Notes under the pieces: model-generated
Told to the model about the DNA's origin: nothing
The model's input: only the letters and a program-made list of their open reading frames with translations
The model's database searches: none
NCBI GenBank assembly: GCA_002869085.1
Contig: PKTQ01000194.1
Span: 1 to 39,309 of the forward strand
DNA length: 39,309 bases
Source: Hyphomicrobiales bacterium
GTDB taxonomy: Bacteria; Pseudomonadota; Alphaproteobacteria; Rhizobiales; BM303
Direction: 5' to 3'
Part shown: positions 1 to 39,309 of the stretch, one piece after another
Layout of the letters: each line of letters opens with the position of its first letter
Position numbering within the stretch: position 1 is the stretch's first letter
Position numbers and translations under genes: made by a program

Positions 1-105
1 ATCGGCCTTGGCCTTGGCGGCTGCGGCTTCCTCATCGGCCTTGGCCTTGGCGGCTGCGGCTTCCTCATCGGCCTTGGCCTTGGCCTTGGCTTCCTTTTCC
101 GCTTT
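1..105. repeat. 33-bp tandem repeat (DEEAAAAKAKA coding unit) at the assembly junction
   Basis: Unit atcggccttggccttggcggctgcggcttcctc is repeated; more copies at 39210..39309. Confidence 0.9.
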
Positions 106-11664: not shown

Positions 11665-11685
11665 CCGATCTCATTCCGCCGCCTC
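11665..11685. repeat. Right flank of an imperfect direct repeat bordering the hicAB cassette
   Basis: See 10840..10858. Confidence 0.6.
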
Positions 11686-13047
11686 TTTTTCTGGCGTCCC
11701 TGTCGCGGGTTCCCCGCTCCCCGCCTCTTTTTGTGGCATCCCTGTCGCGGCTGCGCCGCTCCGCGCCTCTTGGACAAGCTCGACCTCGGCCAGCAGCCCG
11801 GCATCAGACGCGATCCGGTTGCGGGCAATCTCTGCATATTCCGGGTTAAGCTCGATCAGGACAGCGTCCCGGCCCATGCGGTCGGCGACCAGGGCGGTTG
11901 TTCCGGCCCCGCCGAACGGATCAAGCACCGCGCCGCCTTCCGGGCAGCCCGCCTTGATGCATCGCTCCGCAAGCTCGGGCGGGAAGGTCGCGAAATGTGC
12001 CTCTTTGAATGGCCGCGTTGCAATTTTCCATACCTCGATCGGCGCCGGTGCCGGCTCCCAATTGCGCAAATTTCGGCCATTGGCCTGCTGTTCTTCCTTC
12101 GGCATCGCGTCCCACCGGTCATTAAACCCGGCATGACGCCGCCCATGGCCCCGCTGTTTGTCAGTAACCCGAACATTGCCGCTCTTTTCTCGCTTTCCGG
12201 TCTTGCCACCAGTGTAAGATCCGCCGCGAAATCCATTGGCGTTTTCGTTTCCGGTTCGTCCTTGACGCACCGCGTCGGCGTCATAGAAATAATCACGCCC
12301 CTGCCACAGGTTTATCCGCCGCCAGAATAGCCCTGTCCTGGCCTTATCCGTTTCCTCTCCGGTGCGGCGATGCACCCATCGGTAATCAGGTTCTGGGCGC
12401 TCAAACACCCATTCCCTGCGGTCGCGATGAACCCAGCAGGTCGTTACCCCGCTCCGGCTCAACAGAAAGATTTTTTCATGCGCCGTCGCGGGCCGGTCCG
12501 TAATGCTTTCCGGCATCGGATTGGGCTTGGCCCAGATGATTTCTGAGCGCACCCACCACCCCGCCTCCTGCAGCGCTATGGCAAGGCGGTTCGGCACCAT
12601 GCACAGATCCTTCGGCTTCAATGTTCCGCCGGCAACGATTCTGCCCGTATGCACATATGCCTTTTTTGCCTTGCTATCAGGAACTTGTCCGCGAGCCGGA
12701 TCATAAATCGGCCCCACAGTCGAAAGCGGCTTATCGCGGAATGTCCGATCATCCCCGCCCGCCGCCTTGGCCTCGGCTGCGCTGCGCCCGTTCGGCGTGG
12801 TCGCGTAGCAATCGCCATAGTTCAGCCACAGCGTTCCGTCTGGCCGCAGCACGCGGCGGATTTCCTCGAATACCGCCACCATCACGGCCAGATGCTCGCC
12901 GAGCGTCGGCTCCAGCCCGATCTGCCCGGCGACCCCATAATCCCGCAGCCCCCAATATGGCGGCGAGGTCACGACGCAATGGATCGAATTATCCGGCAGT
13001 TCAGCCAACCTATCCATCACATCGCCGAGAAGGATTTTCACGCCCAT
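11671..13047 (-). CDS. Site-specific DNA methyltransferase (beta-type motif order, N4-C or N6-A)
   Basis: CVVTSPPYWGLRDYG (motif IV) near N-terminus; VLDPFGGAGTTALVADRMGRDAVLIELNPEYAEIARNR (motif I) near C-terminus. Start MGVKILLGDVMDRL at 13047. Confidence 0.92.
   Translation of the reverse strand: MGVKILLGDVMDRLAELPDNSIHCVVTSPPYWGLRDYGVAGQIGLEPTLGEHLAVMVAVFEEIRRVLRPDGTLWLNYGDCYATTPNGRSAAEAKAAGGDDRTFRDKPLSTVGPIYDPARGQVPDSKAKKAYVHTGRIVAGGTLKPKDLCMVPNRLAIALQEAGWWVRSEIIWAKPNPMPESITDRPATAHEKIFLLSRSGVTTCWVHRDRREWVFERPEPDYRWVHRRTGEETDKARTGLFWRRINLWQGRDYFYDADAVRQGRTGNENANGFRGGSYTGGKTGKREKSGNVRVTDKQRGHGRRHAGFNDRWDAMPKEEQQANGRNLRNWEPAPAPIEVWKIATRPFKEAHFATFPPELAERCIKAGCPEGGAVLDPFGGAGTTALVADRMGRDAVLIELNPEYAEIARNRIASDAGLLAEVELVQEARSGAAATGMPQKEAGSGEPATGTPEKEAAE
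11679..11762. repeat. Two tandem 42-bp repeats in the 3' end of the methyltransferase gene
   Basis: ccgcctctttttctggcgtccctgtcgcgggttccccgctcc / ccgcctctttttgtggcatccctgtcgcggctgcgccgctcc. Confidence 0.85.
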
Positions 13048-13634
13048 CAGAACCGCGACCCCGCAACTCGATAGGTGTTCAGCGCCTGTTCCTGCCGGTG
13101 AAGGCTGCAAAGCCGATGGTGCGGACCCTCGCTCTTGATCTCCACCCCGCAGGTCATGCATTTGCGGATGGTGACTTGCTGGTTATCGGGCCGGACTTTC
13201 CGTCGCAACCCGGCGTTTTCGCGCGCCTCAGCAACAACAGCCTCGTCATAGGGCTTTAGCATGGCATATGTGTTGAACCTGCCGCAGCGGCCCGTTTGCC
13301 CCAGAAACCCGCCGAGAACCAGCGCCCGAACATCGTTCTGAATCTGTGCCACGGATACGTTGTATTTTTCGGCCATGCCCCGCCGCAGATCATGGCTCAG
13401 CACACCGCTTTCGCTTATTTTTTCCAGCACATCCGCCATGCGCAAATGCATATCGTCGGCGGTGCGCAGCGTCGGGCGCGATTTTATCCCGTCCGCATAG
13501 CGCCACAGCGCCCACCTGACCGTTGACGCGCTCCGACCGCCGACCCGAAGGCCGATTTCCTTGTAAGAAAGCCCCTCGCCGCGCAGCCGGTGCGCCAGGG
13601 AAATCTGATCATTTGTCCACCCCTTGGCCGTCAT
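13047..13634 (-). CDS. GcrA-like HTH regulator with C-terminal zinc-binding motif
   Basis: MTAKGWTNDQISLAHRLRGEGLSYKEIGLRVGGRSASTVRWALWRY; CMTCGVEIKSEGPHHRLCSLHR. Stop overlaps the methyltransferase start (TGATG). Confidence 0.6.
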   Translation of the reverse strand: MTAKGWTNDQISLAHRLRGEGLSYKEIGLRVGGRSASTVRWALWRYADGIKSRPTLRTADDMHLRMADVLEKISESGVLSHDLRRGMAEKYNVSVAQIQNDVRALVLGGFLGQTGRCGRFNTYAMLKPYDEAVVAEARENAGLRRKVRPDNQQVTIRKCMTCGVEIKSEGPHHRLCSLHRQEQALNTYRVAGSRF

Positions 13635-33864: not shown

Positions 33865-34527
33865 TCAGCTGAGAGTTTGAAGGGCTTTGAAACTCAAAAC
33901 CGTGCTGCGGTTGATATTGATTGGATCACTCACCGAATCCGGATCGATCTTCATCAGGCAGTACGGCTTTTCCAGATCGACAGCCGTTGTCGCAACCCAA
34001 CCCGGACGGACAAAAGGTTCAACGGTCCATGTGCCGACACCGGACGCATTGGCAACGGCACTTTCCACCACCTTGTGAAGCGCCCGCTTGTCCGTGTCAT
34101 AGGTGAAGGCGAGAAAATCGCCAGCGACCAATTGGAAGCCGTCCGGCAAGCCTGACAGTGTCACCGTATCGTTATTGGCGCCGACTGCATCCAGCGCAGC
34201 CTGCCCCGTGAATGCGCCGCCACCACCGGCAATCTGAAGCGTTCCCCAGCCACTTTGATAAACCAGCGGAAACCGGCGCATCGGCGGCCACAGCTTGATA
34301 TTTTCAATGCCGCCACGAAGGCTATCAATGATCCCGATCCACTCACCGGCCTGGGCCTCGGTCAGCGGCACGGTTTGCATATCCACCGCCCACAAGGGCG
34401 GCCCGATATCCGCCGCAGCAGCCAGGCCCGCCCGGGTCATGCGGCGGATCTGCATGCGCTGCAACTTGAATGGAGCCGGCCTGACCAGAGGCGGGTCCGG
34501 CATGTCGCGAGGATAAGTGATCGCCAT
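33865..34527 (-). CDS. Tail protein (distal-tail/DUF2460-like position)
   Basis: 220 aa; located between tape measure and tail tip genes. Confidence 0.5.
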   Translation of the reverse strand: MAITYPRDMPDPPLVRPAPFKLQRMQIRRMTRAGLAAAADIGPPLWAVDMQTVPLTEAQAGEWIGIIDSLRGGIENIKLWPPMRRFPLVYQSGWGTLQIAGGGGAFTGQAALDAVGANNDTVTLSGLPDGFQLVAGDFLAFTYDTDKRALHKVVESAVANASGVGTWTVEPFVRPGWVATTAVDLEKPYCLMKIDPDSVSDPININRSTVLSFKALQTLS

Positions 34528-36275
34528 CAGAACTTACCCGCATATTCCGGGTGCCGCGAAAATAACTCATGCACGGTTTCCGCGATCTGGTTCGGCAGAT
34601 CCCGCTTCAACATGGCCACCGAATCCGGTGTGGAGTTGCGGGCATCAATCGAAACACTCAGATTAAGTCCACCTCCTTTGCCCTGGCGGATATTGCTTGC
34701 CTGGGCTGCAGGAATGACCATTTCCCCCTTGTGAATCTGGGCCACCATGTCACGCGGCACATTGTCGATGCCGCTCGCGAATTTTGGCAGATTGAACAGC
34801 CCGCTTAAAAGACTGCCGAACAGTCCGGAACCGCCAGACGAACCGCCGCCAAATAACGGCATCAGAACATTGCGCTGCAAGGTCAGCCGGGCCAGATCCT
34901 TCAGGATCGAAGAAACCATTTCCTTGCCGCCGAGCTTGCCGGTTTCAAACCAGCTCATGAAAGCGCTTTCAAGGTTTCCGGACACGGTCAGGCCCACGTC
35001 CTGCAGGGCCTCGAATTTTTGGTTGACCGCATCAAACCGATCCGTCGATTTTTCCAACCCGTCGAGCATGGAATTCAGCGTCTTTTTCTGGGCGTCGGTC
35101 AGCTTGATATTGCTGTCCTGAAGCTTGTTCCAGATATCCTGTTTCGCATTCATGCGGGCAATGGCGCCTTCGGACTTTCCGATGGACAGCGTGTGCTGAT
35201 CGGTCAGTTGGATTTGCCGCTCCAGATCCCGCAATATCGTCTGAGCCGTGGCCGATGATTTTGAACTGCTGGAGCCAGTTGGAATTTTCACATTGCTGAC
35301 CCGGCTGGGTGTTGACTTGGGCTTGCCCACCGGAGCACCTTTATTCTTGCCACTGTTGACCGGCAGCAGGCCATATTCCGCCAGCACTTTCGGATCATTG
35401 TAATCCTTACCGGTAATCATGGACTGCAGCCGGAGCAGGTTTTTCCAGCCCTCAGCATTGCCTGCCTTTTTCATCAATGAATCAAATGCATCACCCGCAT
35501 GAAAAGCCGCATCAGCCACCGACAGCAGGCTCGAAGTGACATTCCCCTTTAGCGTGGCGGAAAGCTCTTGAAGCCTGTCATTGGTTTTTACCGCTGACTT
35601 AATCAGATCTCCATCGATCACCGCGCTGGCATCACGGGCTTTCTGCCGCAAATCAGCAAGACCAGACGAGCCAGATTCAAGCATGTTGACCATGGCCGCG
35701 CCTTCACTGTCGAATGCCTTGAAAGCCAGCAACAGCCGCTCCTGATCTGAGCCGGCGCGTTGGATCAGATCAGCATAATCCGCCAGAATGGCATTCTGGC
35801 TGCGCATGCTGCCATCGGCGTTGCGCAGTGCGATATTGTTTGCAGTCAGAATTTTATACAGCTCGCCGCCGCCATTGGCGGCCTCGCCGACACGGCGGGA
35901 AAAGCGCTGCATGCCCAAATCAAGCGCATTGGTGGCCACCCCGGAACGCTCCGCGGCAAAACGCAGCTCCTGAAGCGCATCGGTGCTGAGCCCGACTTTT
36001 GCGGCAACCTTGGCGATATTGTCGGCGGCCTTGACAGCCTCGCGGCCCATGGATACAAGCCCGACAGCACTGAGCGCCCCACCCAGACCGAACACGCCGG
36101 AAAGCTTTTTGGCAGCGACGGAAGCGCGGTTCATGCTTTTTGACAGGCGGTTCACCTGCTTGGAGGAACGGCGCATCGCCGACCCGGTTTTTTTCTCAAC
36201 CCGGGCGATGGCGCGCTCATAGCTTTTTGTGTTTGCCTCGATCAGAACCGCGAGCTTTTCAATTTCAGTTGCCAT
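34527..36275 (-). CDS. Tape measure protein
   Basis: 582 aa: helical, ERAIARVEKKTGSAMRRSSKQVNRLSKSMNRAS..., hydrophobic segment and AADNIAKVAAKVGLSTDALQELRFAAERSGV. Confidence 0.88.
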   Translation of the reverse strand: MATEIEKLAVLIEANTKSYERAIARVEKKTGSAMRRSSKQVNRLSKSMNRASVAAKKLSGVFGLGGALSAVGLVSMGREAVKAADNIAKVAAKVGLSTDALQELRFAAERSGVATNALDLGMQRFSRRVGEAANGGGELYKILTANNIALRNADGSMRSQNAILADYADLIQRAGSDQERLLLAFKAFDSEGAAMVNMLESGSSGLADLRQKARDASAVIDGDLIKSAVKTNDRLQELSATLKGNVTSSLLSVADAAFHAGDAFDSLMKKAGNAEGWKNLLRLQSMITGKDYNDPKVLAEYGLLPVNSGKNKGAPVGKPKSTPSRVSNVKIPTGSSSSKSSATAQTILRDLERQIQLTDQHTLSIGKSEGAIARMNAKQDIWNKLQDSNIKLTDAQKKTLNSMLDGLEKSTDRFDAVNQKFEALQDVGLTVSGNLESAFMSWFETGKLGGKEMVSSILKDLARLTLQRNVLMPLFGGGSSGGSGLFGSLLSGLFNLPKFASGIDNVPRDMVAQIHKGEMVIPAAQASNIRQGKGGGLNLSVSIDARNSTPDSVAMLKRDLPNQIAETVHELFSRHPEYAGKF

Positions 36276-36444
36276 CTGGATATCGTTTCATGAGTTCTTT
36301 CAGGCGGTCGCGGGTCATTCCGCCGCCTTGTGGCTTGCTGCCGTTGCGCTCCATATAGCCAGCAACAGCCGCATTGAATTCCGCCAGGGTCATACGCCAG
36401 AACACGTCCGGCGCCAGGCTGAGCACCCCCATCCCTACTTCCAT
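36265..36444 (-). CDS. Tail assembly chaperone, TAC_2 / rcc01693-like (missing from the ORF track)
   Basis: Manual translation: (PLTIERA)MEVGMGVLSLAPDVFWRMTLAEFNAAVAGYMERNGSKPQGGGMTRDRLKELMKRYPDGN*. Open upstream in the -1 frame to the A_AAA_AAG site. Confidence 0.75.
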   Translation of the reverse strand: MEVGMGVLSLAPDVFWRMTLAEFNAAVAGYMERNGSKPQGGGMTRDRLKELMKRYPDGN

Positions 36445-36458
36445 GGCGCGCTCGATCG

Positions 36459-36785
36459 TCAGCGGCTCTCCGCCGCTGCCGGCTTTTTTTCCTCGGCCGG
36501 GCCCCCGCGCAAAGCCAGGGCGATTTTTTCGACCACTTCAGAATTGCCAAAAATCTTGATTGCCGGGATCGCGGCAATGTCAGCCGCATTTCCGGATACG
36601 TCGAGGCTTTCCAGCGCGGCAAGCAGCGCCTCCGGATCGGCCTGCCCCACCCGGCGGATAATGTCACCGATGCCGGCACCGCCCAGCTTGGAAGAAACTT
36701 CGGCCAGGGCGCCAAAGGTGCCAACCAGGACAAGCTTATGGCCCGCCACTTCAAGCGGCACTTCACCGCGATGCTCATTTGCCAT
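36459..36785 (-). CDS. Gene-transfer-agent-family (GTA_TIM-like) tail chaperone
   Basis: MANEHRGEVPLEVAGHKLVLVGTFGALAEVSSKLGGAGIGDIIRRVGQADPEALLAALESL... Confidence 0.75.
   Translation of the reverse strand: MANEHRGEVPLEVAGHKLVLVGTFGALAEVSSKLGGAGIGDIIRRVGQADPEALLAALESLDVSGNAADIAAIPAIKIFGNSEVVEKIALALRGGPAEEKKPAAAESR
36483..36489 (-). promoter_or_regulatory. Programmed -1 ribosomal frameshift slippery site A_AAA_AAG
   Basis: Codons GAA AAA AAG of ORF 36459..36785; the -1 frame is open into the TAC_2-like ORF. Confidence 0.75.
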
Positions 36786-37017
36786 TCGATTTCACCTTTG
36801 ACTTTTTCGGCGCTGGCGCCGGTTTCAGATGCACCGTGAAGCGCTCATGCAGCGGTTTGACTTTCGCGACCGTGAAGGCTTCTCCTTCGATTTCGACCGG
36901 AGCGCCGATCATAACCAGACTCAGACTTTCCAGTCTGACCGGTCGGCCGCCAATCGTTTTGACCCTGACCGCCAGCGTCTCGCCGGCGATCAGGGCATCC
37001 GTGTTCAGCCAGGCCAT
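36775..37017 (-). CDS. Hypothetical tail-module protein
   Basis: 80 aa; overlaps the chaperone ORF. Confidence 0.5.
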   Translation of the reverse strand: MAWLNTDALIAGETLAVRVKTIGGRPVRLESLSLVMIGAPVEIEGEAFTVAKVKPLHERFTVHLKPAPAPKKSKVKSNGK

Positions 37018-37019
37018 GA

Positions 37020-37433
37020 TCAGGCGGCGGTAAAGGTGAGCTCGCCGGCGCTTTCCAGCGAAATCGATTGCTTCACTTCGGCATTGTGATCACCAGAGAA
37101 TTCCAGCGCGGAAATCTGGAATGCACCGGCGATTGTGCCGAAATCCGGGATAATGACCTGCCAATCGACAATGGTGCCGGCGAAGAAATAGCCGCGCGCA
37201 ACCTCGATCGCCGCGTCATCGAGAAACACCCCATCACCGGAGATCGACGCCGTTTTGATGCCGGCGCCGGCCAGCAGCTCGCGCCACTTATTCACGGAAT
37301 CCGAATTGGTGATATCCACCGTTTCAGAATTGAGCGCCAAGGACCGGCTTTGAATGCCGCCCAGCGTCACGAATGTGCCGGCACCGCCCGAATCCACCTT
37401 GAGCAGCATTTCGCTGCCGATCTGTCCAGCCAT
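37020..37433 (-). CDS. Major tail tube protein (TP901-1/GTA type)
   Basis: 137 aa: NSETVDITNSDSVNKWRELLAGAGIKTASISGDGVFLDDAAIEVARGYFFAGTIVDWQVIIPDFGTIAGAFQISALEFSGDHN. Confidence 0.9.
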   Translation of the reverse strand: MAGQIGSEMLLKVDSGGAGTFVTLGGIQSRSLALNSETVDITNSDSVNKWRELLAGAGIKTASISGDGVFLDDAAIEVARGYFFAGTIVDWQVIIPDFGTIAGAFQISALEFSGDHNAEVKQSISLESAGELTFTAA

Positions 37434-39179: not shown

Positions 39180-39309
39180 CTATTTCCCGTTTTTGGGAGC
39201 CGCCTTGGCGGCTTCCTCATCGGCCTTGGCCTTGGCGGCGGCAGCGGCGGCTTCCTCATCGGCCTTGGCCTTGGCGGCTGCGGCTTCCTCATCGGCCTTG
39301 GCCTTGGCG
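39180..39309 (-). CDS. C-terminal part of the same split repeat protein (...AKADEEAAAAAAKAKADEEAAKAAPKNGK*)
   Basis: Reverse-strand frame open from the window end to a TAG stop at 39182..39180. Same DEEAAAAKAKA 11-aa repeats as at 1..130. Confidence 0.8.
   Translation of the reverse strand, partial: AKAKADEEAAAAKAKADEEAAAAAAKAKADEEAAKAAPKNGK
39258..39309. repeat. 52-bp direct terminal overlap identical to positions 1..52
   Basis: Direct string comparison of the window ends. Confidence 0.95.

What the first reader, a model, noticed from the sequence alone, without database searches (positions are those of the whole stretch)
36265..36785. Canonical -1 frameshift site A_AAA_AAG linking two tail chaperone ORFs; the second is missing from the ORF track
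The 108-aa GTA_TIM-like ORF reads GAA AAA AAG CCG ... CGC TGA. A -1 shift at A_AAA_AAG (36489..36483) gives ...EEKK-AGSGGEPLTIERAMEVGMGVLSLAPDVFWRMTLAEFNAAVAGYMERNGSKPQGGGMTRDRLKELMKRYPDGN*, a TAC_2/rcc01693-like domain ending just before the tape measure gene. This is the lambda G/GT layout, but between GTA-type proteins. The apparent domain start (PLTIERAM) lies upstream of the first in-frame ATG, favouring fusion.
Basis: partly seen in the sequence, partly recalled or inferred. Interest (0 to 1): 0.78.

Follow-up and report, generated by a model that had tools for sequence, protein, structure and literature searches.

The report
Frameshift joining two phage-tail chaperone genes
A phage-like element carries a built-in "slip" signal that lets some ribosomes change reading frame, so one gene makes both a short and a long tail-assembly helper; the same arrangement, apparently not described before, turns up in many bacterial gene transfer agents.

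Summary
On the minus strand, the 108-aa ORF (36785..36459, Pfam Phage_TAC_11/GTA-gp10) contains A_AAA_AAG in the right phase (36489..36483). The -1 frame is open from 36537 to 36265 and encodes a clear Phage_TAC_6 (rcc01693-type) domain ending inside the tape-measure start. A 7-bp G+C hairpin (z -3.3) follows the heptamer by 4 nt.

Among 288 distinct TAC_11/TAC_6 pairs, 269 have the second domain in the -1 frame. Slippery heptamers are in phase 152 times against 18 and 15 in the other phases. Where the second frame has no usable start codon, 128 of 143 loci carry a heptamer; where it has an overlapping ATGA start, 4 of 48 do (p ~1e-25). A Shine-Dalgarno-like element lies 6-20 nt upstream of slip sites (p ~6e-15).

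Most of these loci are gene-transfer-agent clusters with short (~194 aa) tape measures. So the window is a lambda G/GT-type -1 frameshift, and GTAs appear to share it, swapping it repeatedly with a coupled ATGA start. I found no report of this. Nothing is experimental: product and efficiency are unmeasured.

The parts
36459..36785 (-). G-like tail assembly chaperone ORF, 108 aa, PF11836 Phage_TAC_11 (GTA-gp10)
   Evidence: E 2e-6, 28.2 bits vs cut-off 27.8; AlphaFold pLDDT 85
36483..36489 (-). slippery heptamer A_AAA_AAG, in phase with the G frame
   Evidence: positional equivalents GGGAAAC/GGGAAAG/AAAAAAG in relatives
36460..36478 (-). RNA hairpin: 7-bp G+C stem (36478-36472 with 36466-36460), 5-nt loop, 4 nt after the heptamer; possible stimulator
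   Evidence: (z -3.29, 0 of 200 shuffles as stable)
36459..36461 (-). TGA stop of the G frame
36265..36483 (-). T-like domain in the -1 frame (72 aa plus TGA), PF09550 Phage_TAC_6; frame open from 36537, no ATG/GTG/TTG before 36444
   Evidence: E 1.8e-16, 60.8 bits vs 23.4; TIGR02216 rcc01693 family, 53.9 bits, just under cut-off 56.1
36442..36444 (-). first in-frame ATG of the T frame; weak ribosome-binding site (-2.2 kcal/mol) and inside predicted helix 1, so unlikely to be the start
34527..36275 (-). tape measure protein, 582 aa; its ATG overlaps the end of T and has no Shine-Dalgarno-like sequence
37020..37433 (-). major tail tube protein, homologous to RcGTA Rcc01691 (g9)
   Evidence: PF06199; E 7.5e-38 to PDB 6tba
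36775..37017 (-). 80-aa ORF between tube and G genes, no family found; not part of the frameshift unit

Best explanation
This is a programmed -1 ribosomal frameshift that makes two tail assembly chaperones from one start: abundant G (108 aa) and a minority G-T fusion (173 aa). Ribosomes decode GAA AAA AAG; a fraction slip back one base at A_AAA_AAG, probably helped by the hairpin 4 nt downstream, pass the G stop and add the TAC_6 domain. By analogy with lambda, G coats the tape measure and the T domain of GT recruits tail tube subunits. Shown here: reading frames, domains, heptamer, hairpin, gene order, and the comparative signature of frameshifting in relatives. Inferred: that slippage happens in the cell, its efficiency, the chaperone roles, and a possible side effect that tape measure translation is coupled to the rare ribosomes that finish T.
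For: Frame and phase; domains; hairpin z -3.3. Gene order tube (Rcc01691 homolog)-G-T-tape measure. Comparative: 269/288 pairs have T in the -1 frame; in-phase heptamers 152 vs 18/15, 82 vs 13/11 in 75%-identity representatives. Heptamer present in 128/143 loci without usable T start but 4/48 with ATGA start, Fisher p 1.3e-25; representatives 68/80 vs 0/18. Shine-Dalgarno-like element 6-20 nt upstream of slip sites, -8.1 vs -4.9 kcal/mol in codon shuffles, p 6e-15. Phage relatives carry a heptamer at -31 to -37 like the window; GGGAAAC also in RHph_Y3_1 and in Desulfofustis phage LS06-2018-MD02. A_AAA_AAG, G_GGA_AAG and G_GGA_AAC are established shift sites, the last two and A_AAA_AAC in viral g-t genes, and the G/GT mechanism is reviewed in PMC5009743.
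Against: No direct evidence of the product. The window itself has no close intermediate relative (only an identical IMG/VR contig), so the A_AAA_AAG at this exact locus rests on one sequence. The window's own upstream SD-like signal is marginal (shuffle p 0.09), and the hairpin signal in relatives is strong only in the GGGAAA group. Structure searches gave only weak matches to annotated tail chaperones. A minority of relatives express T from an ATGA start instead.
Confidence: 0.88

Rival explanations
1. T is a separate gene started at ATG 36444 (or 36432) by reinitiation after the G stop 14 nt upstream; no frameshift.
For: An in-frame ATG exists shortly after the G stop, and 44 relatives without a heptamer do use an overlapping ATGA start.
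Against: The ATG has almost no ribosome-binding site (-2.2 kcal/mol vs -6.9 for G) and lies inside helix 1 of T. The equivalent of the conserved N-terminal PFPW motif lies upstream of it, and in relatives with real starts the start precedes that motif. Heptamers would have no reason to concentrate in phase.
Confidence: 0.07
2. Transcriptional slippage on the run of seven A residues, rather than ribosomal slippage, makes mRNAs with a changed A count, some read in the -1 frame.
For: The window's site contains A7.
Against: Seven A is short for efficient bacterial polymerase slippage (general knowledge). Positional equivalents in relatives are GGGAAAC, AAACCCT or CCCTTTC, which are not homopolymers, so the conserved function cannot be polymerase slippage.
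Confidence: 0.04
3. A sequencing/assembly error or decaying gene: a lost or gained base separates what should be one ORF.
For: The contig is part of a fragmented draft (429 contigs).
Against: 269 of 288 homologous pairs show the same -1 relation, and the signal is at nucleotide level and in phase; both domains are intact.
Confidence: 0.01

Closest known systems
Lambda G/GT programmed -1 frameshift in tail assembly genes (Levin 1993; Xu, Hendrix, Duda 2004; reviewed in PMC5009743)
   Same: Position between tail tube and tape measure genes, -1 overlap, in-phase slippery heptamer near the end of G, T domain without its own start, fusion product predicted.
   Different: Protein families are PF11836/PF09550; no sequence relation to the lambda proteins was shown here. 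Relatives add A_AAC_CCU and C_CCU_UUC slip sites and an upstream SD-like element.
RcGTA g10 (rcc01692) and g10.1/g10.5 (rcc01693), called tail chaperone 1 and 2 in PMC11409702
   Same: Same domain families and the same gene order after the Rcc01691 tail tube gene.
   Different: Not described as frameshifted in the GTA papers read. The RcGTA-like loci L074 and L075 seen here use an ATGA overlap without a heptamer. RcGTA itself could not be examined.
Tail chaperone frameshifts in alphaproteobacterial phages (phiCbK AAAAAAC, Colossus GGGAAAC; PMC3556154)
   Same: Same mechanism and similar heptamers in phages of alphaproteobacteria.
   Different: Other tail chaperones; no link to GTA tail chaperone genes was made.
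dnaX -1 frameshift (A_AAA_AAG with upstream Shine-Dalgarno-like element and downstream hairpin; from general knowledge)
   Same: Same heptamer and the same kinds of stimulator.
   Different: Different gene and product. In the window the SD-like element is weak; it is strong on average in relatives.

Membership tests
Lambda G/GT-type programmed -1 frameshift of tail assembly chaperones | two consecutive ORFs between tail tube and tape measure genes | tested here: met
Lambda G/GT-type programmed -1 frameshift of tail assembly chaperones | second ORF in the -1 frame, overlapping the first | tested here: met
   269 of 288 homologous pairs
Lambda G/GT-type programmed -1 frameshift of tail assembly chaperones | slippery X_XXY_YYZ in phase inside the overlap, conserved in relatives | tested here: met
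Lambda G/GT-type programmed -1 frameshift of tail assembly chaperones | no independent start for the T domain | tested here: met
   first ATG weak and inside the domain; 112 loci of the set have no ATG/GTG/TTG before the conserved motif
Lambda G/GT-type programmed -1 frameshift of tail assembly chaperones | fusion protein actually made, at a low ratio to G | not testable with these tools
   needs a reporter assay or proteomics
PF11836 Phage_TAC_11 (GTA-gp10) | score above the curated cut-off | tested here: met
   28.2 vs 27.8 bits, (narrow)
PF09550 Phage_TAC_6 | score above the curated cut-off | tested here: met
   60.8 vs 23.4 bits
TIGR02216 rcc01693 family | score above the curated cut-off | tested here: not met
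   53.9 vs 56.1 bits; related but not filed as a member
RcGTA-type gene transfer agent (for the window element) | short tape measure (about 200 aa) | tested here: not met
   window tape measure 582 aa vs median 194 aa in GTA-like loci; the window also has an integrase-like protein: a phage or prophage, not a GTA

The most novel reading that the evidence does not exclude
Programmed -1 frameshifting is a widespread expression mode of the g10/g10.1 tail chaperone genes of alphaproteobacterial gene transfer agents, domesticated elements with very short tails. It uses C_CCU_UUC, A_AAC_CCU (or a bare C_CCU) and G_GGA_AAG/C sites with an upstream Shine-Dalgarno-like stimulator, and has been exchanged repeatedly with a coupled ATGA start (at least 13 inferred switches), RcGTA-like loci being on the ATGA side.
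Probability: 0.75. Interest if true: 0.65.

Novelty: new member of a known kind. Interest (0 to 1): 0.5.

Why it matters
Tail chaperone frameshifts are well known in phages, but I found no report of one in gene transfer agents, whose tail proteins are being worked out by structure and genetics. If true, GTA genomes are misannotated at this spot (T genes missing or started too late), host-domesticated particles still depend on a recoding signal to set a chaperone ratio even for very short tails, and natural switches between frameshifting and a separate start allow a direct test of what the G-T fusion is for.

Tried and rejected
Single-protein search of viral contigs found only an identical contig, so family HMMs over whole genomes were used instead. 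An alignment of divergent G proteins was too variable to scan with. First-pass counts of CCCTTTC were inflated because CCCTTTCCCTGG also encodes the conserved T motif PFPW; counts were redone without those codons, and the codon-choice comparison at F (TTT) did not separate the groups, only the flanking CCC codons did. NTG at -4 (from NTGA) was first taken as a start in many loci; only ATG at -4 was kept as evidence of coupling. Downstream RNA structure as a general stimulator: weak in the AAACCC group and absent in the CCCTTT group, so not claimed for the family. Structure search of G in PDB gave nothing and in viral models only weak chaperone-like matches. Pseudogene and assembly error were rejected on the comparative data.

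Full report
Observation. The minus strand of the window reads GAG GAA AAA AAG CCG GCA GCG GCG GAG AGC CGC TGA at the end of a 108-aa ORF (36785..36459). The heptamer A_AAA_AAG is at 36489..36483 with the phase needed for a -1 slip. The second ORF is not in a 60-aa list because its first ATG (36444) leaves 59 codons.

Identity. G matches PF11836 Phage_TAC_11/GTA-gp10 (E 2e-6, narrowly over cut-off) and T matches PF09550 Phage_TAC_6 (E 1.8e-16); NCBIfam's rcc01693 family scores 53.9 bits, just under its cut-off of 56.1. Upstream lies a homolog of the RcGTA tail tube Rcc01691 (E 7.5e-38), downstream a 582-aa tape measure. So this is the tail chaperone position. 'GTA_TIM' in the finding is a misnomer.

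Local signals. A 7-bp G+C hairpin starts 4 nt after the heptamer (z -3.29). The only candidate T start has a very weak ribosome-binding site (-2.2 kcal/mol against -6.9 for G) and lies at residue 14, inside the first helix (residues 10-20) of the predicted T structure (pLDDT 86). The heptamer sequence itself is common in the window (11 matches, 6 expected), so the argument needs relatives.

Relatives. Loci with PF09550 or PF11836-like proteins were collected from genomes of the same order and class, from named genome contigs and from viral contigs. Local profile searches paired G and T in 288 distinct loci; T is in the -1 frame in 269, +1 in 12, same frame in 7. T carries a conserved N-terminal PFPW-like motif. 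In many loci, including Hyphomicrobium, this motif lies before the G stop, encoded by CCCTTTCCCTGG; in some of these the T frame opens only 25-34 nt before the G stop with no start codon at all (L137, L111, L091, L101, L263), so a shift at C_CCT_TTC is the only visible way to read T.

Statistics. Outside the PFPW codons, X_XXY_YYZ heptamers occur 152 times in the slip phase against 18 and 15 in the other two; clustered at 75% identity, 82 against 13 and 11. The tetramer C|CCT shows the same bias, 117 against 5 and 15, and among start-less loci without a full heptamer it still occurs mostly in the slip phase (10 in phase, 1 out of phase), which suggests a relaxed site. Loci with no usable T start have a heptamer in 128 of 143 cases; loci with an ATGA start in 4 of 48 (Fisher p 1.3e-25); in representatives 68 of 80 against 0 of 18. 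These p-values ignore shared ancestry, which is why the clustered counts are given. On a poorly resolved tree of G the two states change at least 13 times. An anti-Shine-Dalgarno-pairing stretch sits 6-20 nt before the slip sites (-8.1 against -4.9 kcal/mol in codon shuffles, p 6e-15), the arrangement known from dnaX (general knowledge); the ATGA group shows only a modest signal at normal start spacing. Downstream hairpins are clearly enriched only in the GGGAAA group.

GTA or phage. Loci with strong G scores are followed by a tape measure of median 194 aa, the short kind expected for GTAs (PMC7296036, describes RcGTA tape measure segments adding to about 216 residues), and tail tubes homologous to Rcc01691. 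Among those with a closed downstream ORF of 150-260 aa, 84 have a heptamer and no nearby start and 35 have an ATGA start without a heptamer. L074, whose tube protein is the closest to Rcc01691 of those compared (E 5.6e-70), is in the ATGA group, which may explain why frameshifting was not noticed in the model GTA; RcGTA itself was not available. The window element, with an integrase-like protein and a long tape measure, is a phage or prophage. Its phage-like relatives keep a heptamer 31-37 nt before the G stop.

Named phages. RHph_Y3_1, Desulfofustis phage LS06-2018-MD02 and ctuI7215 have in-phase GGGAAAC, ctOK67 CCCTTTA, 103231 and contig405706 AAACCCT; all are deposited as separate genes, and Rhizobium phage 16-3 lacks a heptamer.

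Literature. The lambda mechanism and the shift-proneness of these heptamers are established (PMC5009743); phiCbK-like phages use AAAAAAC and GGGAAAC (PMC3556154). GTA papers searched do not mention a frameshift at g10/g10.1 (PMC11409702, PMC7296036, PMC9632790, PMC10883770), nor did the other papers read that hold both GTA and frameshift terms. Subscription papers could not be searched, so novelty is provisional.

Conclusion. The window contains a lambda G/GT-type programmed -1 frameshift with high probability; the wider result, that many GTAs appear to use it, is the part worth following. Nothing here measures translation.

Noticed in passing
window 1-52 and 39258-39309: The contig begins and ends with the same 52 bases (repeat-rich), and terminase and portal genes lie near the left end while the next head-tail genes are at the right end: consistent with a circularly permuted, near-complete phage genome, or with an assembly stop in a repeat.
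   Followed up: partly
window 36275: The tape measure ATG overlaps the end of T and has no Shine-Dalgarno-like sequence; 226 of 269 relatives have an ATG within 30 nt before or overlapping the T stop (no background rate computed). Tape measure synthesis may be coupled to ribosomes that have frameshifted.
   Followed up: partly
L012, L027, L058, L060, L153, L212: A minority of GTA-like loci have T in the +1 frame with an ATG at -8 to -14: overlapping genes rather than a -1 slip.
   Followed up: no
L068, L070, L071: Weakly matching TAC_11 and TAC_6 stretches lie in one continuous ORF, a possible constitutive fusion.
   Followed up: no
L313 (Desulfofustis phage LS06-2018-MD02) 1480-1510: The deposited T gene starts at an internal ATG that removes the conserved PW motif; GGGAAAC is in phase just before the G stop, so the -1 frameshift arrangement also occurs in a phage named for a host outside the alphaproteobacteria.
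   Followed up: partly
L312 (Rhizobium phage 16-3) 4109-5375: The capsid gene is annotated with an alternative product made by a ribosomal slip, while the tail chaperone genes p015/p016 lack a heptamer.
   Followed up: no
L179: A small palindrome-like repeat (aaaccctccccccttgcgggggaggtggcc) lies between G and T, which are about 270 nt apart.
   Followed up: no
window 11674-13182 (minus strand): N6/N4 DNA methylase-domain protein with partial similarity to CcrM.
   Followed up: no
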